A DNA stretch of 64,000 bases, from positions 1,732,501 through 1,796,500 of the forward strand of contig JAIGNY010002171.1 in NCBI GenBank assembly GCA_020152595.1. Reading direction: 5' to 3'. A model generated the notes under the pieces. That model saw only the letters and a list, made by a program, of their open reading frames with translations. It was not told the origin of the DNA and searched no databases. Positions 23,201 to 32,200 of this stretch are shown piece by piece. The stretch is from Chiridota heheva (taxonomy: Eukaryota; Echinodermata; Holothuroidea; Apodida; Chiridotidae). Each line of letters starts with the position of its first letter. Position 1 is the first letter of the stretch. The position numbers and the translations under genes are program-made.

Positions 23201-26200
23201 TAGATGTATGTGTACATATATATAATATATATATATATATATATATATCTATATATATATATATATATATATATACATATATATATATATATATATATAT
23301 ATATATATATATAGATGTATGTATACATACATATATATATTTTTATATATATATATGAATAAATGTATATATATATATATAGATATATATCATATATAAA
23401 TATATATATATATATATATATATATATATATATATATCAATCAATATCAATATATATCAATATTAATAATTATTAATATCAATAAATATAAGATATTAAT
23501 AAATATATACATGAAGAAATTCCTCTCTATAGGAGAATTGGTCAAAATTGCCTGAAGCATCCAGAATGTCAAGCTCAGACTACACTGCACAAGCCACCAG
23601 CTTTCCAGACCAGCATGCAAACCATTCCCTTGCTCATCATCCTCACTCTATTTAACTTTTGCATGGGTGCAAGCTTAGCAGGGTGAAATTTACTTCAAGT
23701 TATACCTTACCTTCCATGCTATAAATATGCAGCAATCAGATTGCAACCAAGGATAGGAAGGGAGTTCAGGTCCCAGTACAATTTTCTAAAGGCTGGTACT
23801 AAAACTCTCACTAATCTAATCCCGCTTACAGGACAAAATTCCTTCTCCTCTTAAGGATGAAAGCCCTCAGAGTGGGAAGTACTAAAACATAGTAAACCAC
23901 TTCTAGTTGCAGTCAAACCGAACAAGGTACTATACGTTAACAGTAACTGAGGCAAACATCGCATAAACCTGAGTTAGAAACTCGGAAAACATGCCAACCG
24001 GAAGAGCGTTTGCACAAGATATGTTTATTATAATATTGTATACAAAAACGCCACAAAACCCACCGGGTTAGTCCACGAGACGGAACCCGCTAGTAAAATA
24101 AAATTGGGAATGAAGCGTGTACTAGCTAAATTGAGTTGAAGAAATCCCAAGCCAGGGAAAATTCGTTAGCGCGTAAGTGCTTAAGAGCAAAAGTTAGCGG
24201 GGTAACACGAACTTCGCAAAGTAAGTCAGACAAAATCAAGGGAAAAAACCACGATAAGCGTTTTCCCGAACGGTGGTAAGAGAAATCCGTTAAAGGGGAT
24301 ATGCCTCGAACCCGAGTGTATACCTCTGCCGTTCCATGAACAGTGTCGTCTACCTTTAAAAGAAAGCTACCGGACGATCCATTGAAGGAGAATGTCTCGT
24401 GACACAGTACGATAAGATTACCGTGTAAATTCCCAGTGGTCGCGAGTCAAAGACCGTAGACCCAACTGGAAAACCTCGGTGGATGGCTGCAAGCTATCAT
24501 AGAGCCCATGACTGAACCAAGTCTGAGAGAAGGCTCCCCTCCAAAATGGGGAGAGGTTGAACAACTCCTCAGAAAGGCCTTGCTACGCCGAGGATAGATG
24601 GAATAAGGCCACATGGTTAAACGAAGTGCTCTGGGACTGAGATGCAGTTTGCCGGAGCCCGGGAAAAAGACAAAAGTCGTCCCTGACCAAAGGCTTGTAC
24701 GGGAAGCCTGCAAGGTCTTAGCAGCTGAGGGAACCACAGTGGGCCGGGCAAAGTGGGCGCTATCGGTCGTACGTCGCCTTGCTTAGCATATCCGGTGAAA
24801 GGCGGAAAGCGTAACCACATAGTGAGTTCTTTTGAAAACAAATGCGTCGACCTTGAAACCCGCGGGTCAGAAGAAAGGACGCAAAGAATAGATTGCTTGC
24901 GATCGTCCACGGATGCGGACAGACCTACGTCCAGGAGACCGAATAAGGTCCTGATCGCGCTGGTCACCTATGGGTAATAACTATCAGTACAAAAGAAGTG
25001 TCTGGGTCTACGATAGCGTTAATGTACTACATCTGTTACATGAGTCGTTACCTCAGTATACTTTTATTAACTACGGCACCACTGAGTAAGTGGCTATGCG
25101 TGAGGAAGTAAAGTCGTACTCCATACGCGTTCCTGGTGGAATAGCTAAAAATATACTGGAGCTGTATGGAATACGGAGTTCACGTGCTACGCAAGTTATA
25201 CAAGCCGTAAACTGTGTTTGTTTCACTATGGGGCTACGAAACTGGTAGCTGCGTGGGGAAGAGGGGACTACCATCATACTCAGTACGTGTCCCGGTAAGA
25301 ATAAAGGCCGCGGAACTCTGTAGCTCATGGCTACTGGTCGCTTACCATGCAGTTACACTGCTAGTATATGCCGTTAACTCTGTTTGTATCTGTTCACTAC
25401 GGAGCAGCGTAGCCGGTGGCTACATGTGGGGGACTGCCGTCGAACGCTAAATGCGCCCAATAAGAATGACGACCGCGGAACTCTGTAGCACACGGCTATC
25501 GGTTGCATTATCCTGAAGTTCTGTTACCCAGGGTTATCGTACGTTGTACGTTATCCCGTGTAGGTCATGTGAGGGCCGTAATGGCCCGTTCACTGGAGCC
25601 GTGTAGCTACTCGTGAACTCATGTCTTGGAGCTGTAGGGGCCCGTACGGAGCCATTTAGAGGGTCCGTAAAGTTGTGGTACTCCCGGTCTACTGTACGTT
25701 GTACGTAAAACCGCGTTAATATCTTTATAATTTGAGCGGAACGTCACGTTCAACGCGAAAATTATATTCAGTGTAGTTCGAACAGTTGTGGAACTACGTA
25801 ACACAGAGAAAATAGCTCTCGTAATGCTATGCTTCTCGTGGAGATGGTTTTCTTATCACCCGACCACTAAGCTTCGTAACCTGAGGAAGCGCTTACACAC
25901 GACTCATCGCCGGGCATCCTGGGTGCGTAACGCACTGACATACGGGGACTTGTCCTCCGTGTTCATGATACTGGTGAATTTTTTTCGGAACTGTGATGTT
26001 CAACGCGGAAATCTTACTAAGGTAGCTCACACGGACGTGGAATTACGTAGCTGATGGTTATGGTAACAAGAAGAAAATAGCTCTCGCAACGCTATACTCC
26101 TTGTGAAGATTGTTACTTATCACCTGACCTGCTGACTATGTAGCTTTATAGCTAAAGGGTCTTATTATCGGGTGTGACGTACATTGTACGTTACCTCGCT

Positions 26201-29200: not shown

Positions 29201-32200
29201 GTAGGCTACACGGGAAAGTCCTGTAAGTCGGACCGAAGAAATCCTGGACCCATGGCTACCTCGTCTTACCTCAGAAGACTTGAAAAGGCAAACAGGATAA
29301 GATAGAGCAGCGTAAAACCTGCCTGGTAGAAGCTGCAAAGGAGAAAATTGTTAGAAAAAGGTTAAATTTATGAAACAAATTTTAACAGTTCCAGCGTTGT
29401 TGTGAAAACAACGTGCTGGAAAAGAGTGAGGGTTAGTAGAGGTTATATGGAGGTCAGGGCTGGCTGGTAACTACGTTTTTAAGGTCAGTTAGAAGTGCGA
29501 TAGAATCAGGTCATGAGACCAGATTGCATATTTATAGCATGGAAGGTAAGGTATAACTTGAAGTAAATATATATATATATATATATATATATATATATAT
29601 ATATATATATATATATATATATATATATATATATATATATATATATATATATATATATATATATATATATATATATATATATATATATATATATATATAT
29701 ATATATATATATATATATATATAATAAATATATATATATATATATATATATATATACATATATATATATATATATATATAAGTAAATATATACATATAAA
29801 TATATATATATATATATATATATATATATATATATATATATATATATATATATATATATATATATATATATATATATATATATATATATATATATATATA
29901 TATATATATATATACATATATATATATATATATATATATATATATAATAAATATATATATAAATATATATATATATATATATATATATATATATATATAT
30001 ATATATATATATATATATATATATATATATATATATATATATATATATATATATATATATATATATATATATATATATATATATATATATATATATATAT
30101 ATATATATTTAATATCCGAGTAGGTGCCTTTTTGCATCATTTTCATAGTGTAGGTGTCTTTTTTCCTCATTTGCGTAGTAAAGGTCTCAAACAATTTCAT
30201 ACTGCTGGTCAATATTTCATGCCGAAAAGTTTCTCTTTAAGCCTACCCGCACCTAACACCCGAGTTATTCCTGAAATATCAGGTATGGCAATTACCAACC
30301 CAACTTCCTGTTCAGTGTATTGTGTTTCCACTCCAAACAATGATTGTTTATCTGACATTCCCATGCCACCACAGCCAAGTAGCTATTTGTGTGAACTATA
30401 AGATTACACAAAGCCAGAGCTGAATAATAAAGGAACATTTGTGATTGAAATCACTCTTCCTTGTTGGGTGTCTTAGTGGGAATGTTTTATTTTAAACTGT
30501 GAAAAAAATAGCTGTGTATCATAATGCCTGAGGTAATAATGTTCATTAATTGTGAATGATTGACGGACCATTTCTCCTAAGGAAAGATATTGCTTCATAT
30601 TCGTTGAATACTCCATACTGCAGGTATCCAAATTAAAGGAGCACTAGACCAAAAAGTGAGGGCGCTTTTTTTGTGCGAATTTCACAGATATATCATAAAC
30701 AAAAGATAAGCTTCATGCCTCCATAGCCCACAAACGACGTGAGGGCAGTGGTTACTTGACTATTCACATTAATCAGAAATTTGGTATGCCGTTGCATGCT
30801 AGATAAGCATTTGATTTTTTGGAGACCCTAAAAATACGACCTTACACTTTAAGTATGAATTGCCCCCCCACTCCCCAGGGCACTCCCTGGTATTTACCAC
30901 ACTGGTAACTAATTACAAATATTAAAGGGGAGATTTTTGTGTGAATGTGTAGTGTTGTATTTGGGTGCATAGGTACGCACTGTTTCTGACAGTCTACAAA
31001 CAACCACAATTCCTATCAATACGAGAATCATTATTTTTCAACAAAGAATTCTTTCAATTTTGGAGTTTACATATTTTTGTCTTTATTTGACAAGATGACT
31101 TTTAATGGGCACAAAAGATGGTTAAATAGAAACTTTATGTTGTGTTCTTTATCTCTTTTCTTACTATTAGTCTTTGTAAATGATGAGAATGTTCTTTCTC
31201 CTTCAAGGTCTCAACATACATCACAAACTTCCATAAGTTTGTTTTCCAATTAAGATGGAGATAATCCTTGCTTCAGTATTTCCATGGGTATTATTTTTTT
31301 TTTTTCAATTTAAAATTATCTGTTTATATACCTTCATTTCATATGAAGGTGCTTCAGATGCAATAATGGTGCAATTTGATTTAAACAAGAGAATGATTTG
31401 AAATATGACAATGAATTTGTTTGACTGAATTTAAATTTAAAAGGATTCATAAATTTTTGCTGTACTATTATAGTGAAACATTGCCAAAACTATTTTTGTG
31501 TGTACGTGACCATTGGATCAGTTCATTACTTGGCTGTAACAAAATGTGAAAGTGGATTCAACTATTTACTAAACACTTTCACAATTCAGTTTTTTCATTA
31601 AAAGAAACTTTGTTGGTGAGGTGAGACTTAGCTCGTCTGAGACTACCTTCTAATATAACTAAACACATATTTGTGTGCGGATCTCATATCATCTGTTATC
31701 CTGACAAACACCTCTAAAGACTTGTGGTAATGTGGTCATGTTCATCAATCACTACCGTCTCTCTCCGTATATTGATTAAATCTTTTGGGTACCTTTACAC
31801 AATATTCTCATGATGATGCCCTAATTTCTCATGAGATCTTATGAGATTATACAAGAACTGCTGACTTCTCATGAGAAATTGGATTCTCTTTATGAGTATT
31901 TTGTAAGAGTATGTAGGTAGGGTCAATATACACTTTCAAAATTATGTTACTGATGACAAACATTTTAAACAGGCTTTAGCTTATCAGGCTCAACTTATCA
32001 GTCATTGATAAAAAATAAGTAGCACATCACTGTCACACCATTTTACCACTATTCAAACAGTAATAACAACTATTTTAAAGGTGAATGGACTTGTCAATAG
32101 CTATTTACACTCTTTGAACATAATTTGACATTGATCAAATACTTCTGAATACCCACGAGGGGGCACGTGCCCTCCCAAATGTTTGTCCAAAAAAACAAGA

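What the first reader, a model, noticed from the sequence alone, without database searches (positions are those of the whole stretch)
23688..29568. A 5.9-kb, apparently non-coding element made almost wholly of RNA-like hairpins, bounded by perfect 44-bp inverted repeats
Seen: exact 44-bp terminal inverted repeats, composition and texture unlike the AT-rich intron around it, no recognisable protein, and several tandem families whose units are themselves hairpins. Known: MITEs are short; the sea urchin TU and insect FB fold-back elements have tandem-repeat arms, but I know of none with this layered stem-loop interior. Inference: a non-autonomous mobile element, or an integrated copy of a large structured RNA, that selection or copying keeps structured. 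This is my best candidate for an undescribed system.
Basis: partly seen in the sequence, partly recalled or inferred. Interest (0 to 1): 0.9.

Follow-up and report, generated by a model that had tools for sequence, protein, structure and literature searches.

The report
Truncated non-autonomous DIRS-type retrotransposon copy
The strange hairpin-rich block is one damaged copy of a common jumping element (a DIRS-type retrotransposon that has lost its genes), and its 44-base "ends" are one true end plus the internal mirror sequence that such elements are thought to use to close into a circle.

Summary
The exact 44-bp inverted repeat, the compositional jump and the tandem arrays are real, but the block is not an undescribed system. 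It is one copy of a repeat family in a 1.1-Gb genome. In 18 of 20 other copies fetched, about 270 bp more lies left of 23688, from a left terminus to a centre (AGCGGGGTAAA|TTTACTTCAAG) that is the reverse complement of right terminus joined to left terminus: the internal complementary region (ICR) of DIRS1-like retrotransposons. Nine of the 20 carry decayed gene pieces between the same ends (gag, RT, RNase H and tyrosine recombinase together in seven); nine others resemble the gene-poor window copy, which keeps a 50-codon gag fragment and a pol remnant. Ten testable copies show no target-site duplication beyond 2 bp; the right end reads AAT in 12 of 14. Folding beats shuffled controls, yet in coding copies the leader folds no better than pol, and compensatory changes are few. 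Genome counts, an empty-site search and a fold search did not complete. Verdict: truncated copy of a non-autonomous DIRS family, an ordinary but instructive case.

The parts
23508..23671 (+). Unrelated ~165-bp dispersed repeat that abuts the truncated element; NOT part of it (it marks where the left terminus was lost)
   Evidence: 40 of 338 candidates scored; besides the window itself 39 places, 87-92% identical, starting at query 4-34 and ending at 176-193 of 198
23673..23687 (+). Remnant of the left half of the ICR (complement of the lost left terminus); truncation point
   Evidence: GCTTAGCAGGGTGAAA against GCTTAGCGGGGTAAA in 13 of 20 copies; best local score 24 (usually 21) against a maximum of 18 at 400 random window positions (background scored against 4 copies only)
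23688..23731 (+).
23732..23908 (+). 3' non-coding segment (element positions 45-221) shared by gene-bearing and gene-poor copies
   Evidence: in gene-bearing copies the match stops at 221 in L011, L014, L016, L018, L019, L020, L023, at 184 in L021 and 269 in L024
24557..24943 (-). Decayed pol remnant (linker downstream of RNase H)
   Evidence: pieces of 67-82% nucleotide identity in 8 of 9 gene-bearing copies (not L018); protein score 88 against shuffled mean 26.9, maximum 44 of 500
24974..24975 (.). Deletion point of this copy: fuller copies carry 1.35-1.7 kb more here
   Evidence: L013 2760 to 4446, L025 2801 to 4150; 12 listed matches begin at element position 1287
24975..27168 (-). Interior of the gene-poor lineage; its first part (positions 1287-1918) is in 6 of 9 gene-poor and 0 of 9 gene-bearing copies; 202-nt units lie in the rest
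27169..28807 (-). Array-bearing leader, shared in part by gene-bearing and gene-poor copies; includes the 15-bp, 34/44/54/78-bp families
28808..28957 (-). 50-codon fragment of the gag start
   Evidence: 68% identity, E 4.7e-18 to the L024 open stretch
29425..29568 (+). Right terminal repeat (ITR); last 44 bp pair with the ICR; its ~134-bp counterpart at the left is missing in this copy

Best explanation
The block is a truncated copy of a dispersed, non-autonomous DIRS1-like (tyrosine-recombinase) retrotransposon family. Inferred working: the element is transcribed on the minus strand, from 29568 towards 23688, and reverse transcriptase supplied in trans by gene-bearing relatives copies it. The ICR, the complement of right terminus joined to left terminus, templates completion of the ends and their joining into a circle. 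A tyrosine recombinase then recombines the 3-bp circle junction with a target, leaving no target-site duplication. SHOWN: ICR/termini geometry, shared ends of gene-bearing and gene-poor copies, gene order in relatives, absent TSD in the sample, remnants of gag and pol in the window copy, loss of its left terminus. INFERRED: transcription, trans-mobilisation, circle, integration chemistry (from published models of DIRS elements). The arrays are best read as a repeat-rich leader that expanded where genes were lost; a cis-acting role (for example packaging) is possible but untested.
For: ICR centre AGCGGGGTAAA|TTTACTTCAAG (or TAG) is the complement of right end + left end; left terminus located in 18 of 20 fetched copies. 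An A/T variant in the right half of the ICR agrees with the copy's own right terminus in 10 of 10 copies tested, window included. Flanks share nothing in 9 of 10 copies and 2 bp in one; right end AAT in 12 of 14 loci with a right-end match. Gene-bearing copies: RVT_1 E 9e-7 (L018) and 3.9e-6 (L024), RT_RNaseH 0.0098 (L014); gag, RT, RNase H and YR pieces together in 7 of 9. YR: an L014 stretch is 47% identical over 66% to P0009, whose relatives include Apostichopus japonicus proteins named Tyr recombinase domain-containing; one, P0020, gives PF02899 E 0.0012 and PF00589 E 0.037. In 40 aligned proteins H263, R266 and W289 are invariant and Y299 nearly so, as the recalled HxxR-W-Y motif wants. 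Order gag-RT-RNase H-YR-ICR-left terminus in L014 and L021. Definition in print: PMC3266345, passages.
Against: Pfam scores in the family itself lie below curated cut-offs; YR stretches alone gave no credible Pfam hit and no PDB hit. In the left half of the ICR a copy's own terminus is no closer than other copies' (mean 51.39 against 51.43 of 60; 18 copies). No methyltransferase domain was identified. Right-end matches in L011 and L022 do not read AAT. L016 showed no RT piece, L011 no gag or RT piece. No intact gene-bearing copy was seen among the 20. Sampling is biased to good left-end matches.
Confidence: 0.93

Rival explanations
1. A fold-back or MITE-like DNA transposon, moved by a DDE transposase through 44-bp terminal inverted repeats.
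For: Exact inverted repeats and tandem-repeat interior; dispersed copies.
Against: The left repeat is internal in other copies; no TSD beyond 2 bp in 10 copies; gene-bearing relatives show RT and YR pieces.
Confidence: 0.02
2. A PAT-, Ngaro- or VIPER-type YR retrotransposon (split direct repeats) rather than DIRS1-like.
For: RT and YR are common to YR retrotransposons; no methyltransferase domain was shown here.
Against: The terminal and internal matches are inverted, not split direct repeats; an ICR is described for DIRS1-like elements.
Confidence: 0.04
3. The gene-poor copies are only independent decay products of gene-bearing copies, not an amplified non-autonomous family.
For: The terminal ~590 bp do not separate gene-bearing from gene-poor rows: 4 label changes, 88 of 500 shuffles as low for gene-poor (16 rows; 5 of 20 loci dropped for lacking 300 bp there; bootstrap not settled). 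Gene-bearing copies are themselves broken.
Against: Six of nine gene-poor copies share the same interior (positions 1287-1918), seen in none of nine gene-bearing copies at E 1e-8; a further block of 1.5-1.7 kb is 84-86% like L013's in L010, L012 and L017.
Confidence: 0.12
4. A structured RNA, selected for its hairpins, was captured and is carried by the element.
For: Folding z -1.57 inside against -0.19 outside; consensus folds better than column-shuffled controls in 7 of 8 strand tests.
Against: No Rfam family at gathering score and none credible below it; few compensatory changes; leader folds no better than pol in five gene-bearing copies (-1.07 against -0.96, P 0.78).
Confidence: 0.05

Closest known systems
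DIRS1-like retrotransposons (PMC3266345, passages)
   Same: Inverted termini, ICR complementary to the joined termini, 3-bp junction (NTT, mostly ATT, in print; AAT in window orientation here), no TSD, RT/RNase H/YR pieces in gene-bearing relatives. ICR here about 100 bp (44-46 plus about 55); printed sums 85-130 bp.
   Different: The window copy and nine relatives are gene-poor. Two gene-poor copies with both ends measure 7223 and 7323 bp (L013, L025) and gene-bearing ones 5302-7487 bp (L014, L016, L018, L019, L021); printed sizes of 28 annotated elements 3974-6283 bp.
DIRS-1 of Dictyostelium discoideum (PMC5633606, passages)
   Same: ICR and inverted termini; circular intermediate and YR integration proposed.
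   Different: DIRS-1 has three ORFs; here genes are gone or decayed and the leader carries tandem arrays.
LARD/TRIM-type non-autonomous LTR retrotransposons (recalled analogy)
   Same: Large gene-free derivative sharing ends with gene-bearing partners.
   Different: Different ends and integration enzyme; an analogy only.
Fold-back (FB, TU) elements and MITEs (recalled)
   Same: Inverted repeats, tandem repeats.
   Different: Here the left repeat is internal, TSD absent, relatives carry RT/YR.

Membership tests
DIRS1-like retrotransposon | Inverted terminal repeats at both ends | tested here: met
   Met in the family: left terminus in 18 of 20 copies, beginning a segment that matches the reverse complement of right positions 5738-5871. 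In the window copy itself the left terminus is missing.
DIRS1-like retrotransposon | Internal complementary region equal to the complement of the joined termini | tested here: met
   the window keeps the right half (44 of 44) and a 15-bp piece of the left half.
DIRS1-like retrotransposon | 3-bp junction and no target-site duplication | tested here: met
   AAT at the right end in 12 of 14 matched loci; flanks share nothing in 9 of 10, 2 bp in one. Empty sites could not be searched.
DIRS1-like retrotransposon | RT and RNase H genes | tested here: met
   In relatives only, weak but consistent; RT pieces in 7 of 9, RNase H in 9 of 9 gene-bearing copies. Window copy: no RT found, a remnant of the linker only.
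DIRS1-like retrotransposon | Tyrosine recombinase downstream of RT | tested here: met
   In relatives, through database homologues. Direct Pfam/PDB searches of the family's own stretches found nothing credible; fold search unanswered.
DIRS1-like retrotransposon | Methyltransferase (MT) domain | tested here: inconclusive
   A linker between RNase H and YR is shared by copies, but no Pfam match was found.
DIRS1-like retrotransposon | Circular DNA intermediate | not testable with these tools
   Needs DNA from the organism.
PAT / Ngaro / VIPER | Split direct repeats | tested here: not met
   Terminal and internal matches are inverted.
Fold-back / MITE DNA transposon | Copies end at the inverted repeats and carry a TSD | tested here: not met

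The most novel reading that the evidence does not exclude
A gene-free DIRS lineage, as long as its gene-bearing partners, has multiplied by borrowing their enzymes while replacing its lost genes with duplicated leader units, and these array units act in cis (for example to capture RNA or recombinase). It would be a DIRS counterpart of large non-autonomous LTR derivatives.
Probability: 0.3. Interest if true: 0.5.

Novelty: new member of a known kind. Interest (0 to 1): 0.3.

Why it matters
It corrects a striking misreading: an exact inverted repeat that looks like transposon ends can be one end plus an internal complementary region. It also documents a dispersed, gene-poor DIRS lineage sharing ends with gene-bearing partners; exact-phrase searches of an open full-text library for 'nonautonomous DIRS' and 'non-autonomous DIRS' returned no papers, which does not exclude Repbase entries, other wordings or subscription papers. 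Such gene-poor copies could serve to test which sequences DIRS elements need in cis.

Tried and rejected
Rfam: nothing at gathering score in the window, three sub-threshold matches of E 0.064-0.19 in 23600-29650. Phage and plasmid records, 24000-29500: no match. Conserved structure: alignments of 11-15 copies show few compensatory changes but consensus folds better than column-shuffled controls in 7 of 8 strand tests; two other regions had only 1 and 2 copies and say nothing. Leader against pol folding: no difference. A plus-strand ORF of about 120 aa shared by several gene-poor copies was considered as a captured gene and rejected: it has stops in L012, L017 and L028, protein identity to L013 (67-74%) is below nucleotide identity (82-86%), and part of the block matches the RNase H region, antisense, in 4 of 9 gene-bearing copies. 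Tree of the terminal ~590 bp: star-like, labels not separated. PDB sequence searches of the RNase H stretch and the YR profile: none. The first ICR script ended in an error after its right-half table, because the left-terminus search window was too short; the left half was redone. The list of open stretches was cut in the output, so it was not seen whole for some loci (part of L018 to part of L022).

Unanswered: whole-block search (same request answered), joined-flank empty-site search, count of ICR centres in the genome, fold search of the YR model. Waiting scripts.
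Full report
What was claimed. A 5.9-kb non-coding block at 23688-29568, bounded by exact 44-bp inverted repeats and made of hairpins, proposed as an undescribed system.

Observation. The 44-nt inverted repeat is exact. GC rises to 0.48-0.55 over 24-28 kb in an AT-rich setting, and several tandem families lie inside. Folding of 38 windows of 200 nt inside gives a mean z of -1.57 (12 below -2) against -0.19 for 31 windows outside (2 below -2); the two extremes fall on tandem arrays.

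Copies. The genome holds 1,100,099,931 bases in 3744 contigs. The first 101 bp gave 1133 first-look candidates, 40 scored, all at E 3.2e-31 or better, the window included. I fetched 20 loci, the 2nd to 22nd best left-end matches with one (on C1473) left out, so the sample favours copies with good left parts.

Where the element really ends. In the other copies a further segment lies left of the position corresponding to 23688 (266-272 bp in the ten copies with both ends), containing the reverse complement of right-end positions 5738-5871. A left terminus (TTTACCCCGCTAAGCG... and variants) was located in 18 of 20, not in L009 and L020. The point corresponding to 23688 reads AGCGGGGTAAA|TTTACTTCAAG, or TAG for AAG, in most copies: the reverse complement of right terminus CTTGAAGTAAA joined to left terminus TTTACCCCGCT. 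This is an internal complementary region as defined for DIRS1-like elements (PMC3266345, passages; PMC5633606, passages). The A/T variant in its right half agrees with the copy's own right terminus in 10 of 10 copies, window included. Against this, the left half is no closer to the copy's own terminus than to others' (51.39 against 51.43 of 60, 18 copies).

Insertion signature. Of 14 loci with a right-end match, 12 end GTAAA followed by T (AAT); L011 and L022 do not. In 10 copies with both ends, flanks share nothing in 9 and 2 bp in one, L026. This fits the published 3-bp junction without target-site duplication. The empty-site search did not complete.

Genes in relatives. Nine of the 20 loci (L011, L014, L016, L018, L019, L020, L021, L023, L024) hold gene pieces on the minus strand. 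All four of gag, RT, RNase H and YR were found in seven; L016 gave no RT piece, L011 no gag or RT piece. L022 keeps part of the YR region, L015 is a 702-bp short copy, and nine (L009, L010, L012, L013, L017, L025, L026, L027, L028) follow the window past position 221 and show only gag-start fragments (L009, L013, L017, L025, L028), one RNase H piece in L028, or nothing. RT matches Pfam RVT_1 at E 9e-7 and 3.9e-6, just under the curated cut-off; RNase H at 0.0098. A database relative (P0001) is 53% identical over 82% of the L023 stretch and passes RVT_1. For the recombinase, an L014 stretch matches P0009 (47% over 66%); P0009's relatives include Apostichopus japonicus proteins named Tyr recombinase domain-containing, and P0020 shows PF02899 at 0.0012 and PF00589 at 0.037, both under their cut-offs. 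Direct searches with the family's own YR stretches found nothing credible in Pfam or PDB. A model of P0020 was made (mean pLDDT 81.5), but the fold search stayed unanswered. Order along the minus strand in L014 and L021 is gag, RT, RNase H, linker, YR, ICR, left terminus. In the gene-bearing copies the protein matches are broken into pieces, and stops show; I saw no intact gene set.

The window copy. Its left terminus is missing: left of a 15-bp ICR remnant (23673-23687) stands an unrelated dispersed repeat of about 165 bp (23508-23671), and no second terminus match was found in the window. It keeps a 50-codon gag fragment (28808-28957, minus; E 4.7e-18) and a pol remnant at about 24557-24943. 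It lacks 1.35-1.7 kb present at 24974/24975 in L025 and L013; 12 listed genome matches start at the corresponding position 1287.

Gene-poor lineage. The interior at positions 1287-1918 occurs in 6 of 9 gene-poor copies and 0 of 9 gene-bearing ones. Gene-poor copies with both ends measure 7223 (L013), 7323 (L025), 4438 (L028) and 2571 bp (L026); gene-bearing ones 5302-7487 bp (five copies). Terminal ~590 bp are intermixed on a star-like tree of 16 rows (5 of 20 loci dropped), as expected if both are copied by the same enzymes, or if they decay independently. I favour trans-mobilisation, but it is inference.

Hairpins. No Rfam family fits at gathering score. In three alignments of 14-15 copies compensatory cells number 1-6 of 542-760 per strand, and 2 per strand of 152 and 283 in one of 11 copies; yet consensus folds beat column-shuffled controls (z -2.5 to -5.5) in 7 of 8 strand tests, a control that does not keep dinucleotides. 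In five gene-bearing copies the leader folds no better than pol (49 windows mean -1.07, 55 windows mean -0.96, P 0.78). Selection for structure is not shown and not excluded.

Literature. Passages were seen of five papers: PMC3266345, PMC8498967, PMC2685390, PMC5633606 and PMC9210276. Other papers were seen only in search listings, some of them capped. The phrases 'nonautonomous DIRS' and 'non-autonomous DIRS' returned no paper in the held library.

Verdict. A truncated copy of a non-autonomous DIRS1-like retrotransposon family; a new member of a known kind.

Noticed in passing
window 58198-60936 (-): A 913-codon open stretch with endonuclease and reverse transcriptase domains (RVT_1 E 1.3e-28): a LINE with a long open frame.
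   Followed up: partly
window 47251-47598 (-): A 116-codon open stretch with an RWD domain (E 6.4e-12), so the window may hold an exon of a host gene.
   Followed up: no
window 1866-2987 (+) and 18090-18656 (-): Endonuclease domains of the LINE kind; several other open stretches look like LINE pieces by eye.
   Followed up: partly
window 23508-23671: A dispersed repeat of about 165 bp, 87-92% alike in 39 other scored places, abutting the truncated element.
   Followed up: partly
window 49526-49631: Degenerate tandem repeat with TTAGG/TTTAGG-like units, resembling telomere repeats.
   Followed up: no
window 15008-15938 and 6493-7273: A 49-bp x 19 array with strong strand asymmetry and a 24-bp x 33 array.
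   Followed up: no
L015 1230-1931: A 702-bp short copy with left terminus, ICR and right terminus, a MITE-sized DIRS derivative.
   Followed up: partly
left termini of the fetched copies: The left terminus commonly begins with a 7-bp-stem hairpin (CCCCGCTAAGCGTAGCGGGG); L011 shows a paired change in its stem.
   Followed up: no
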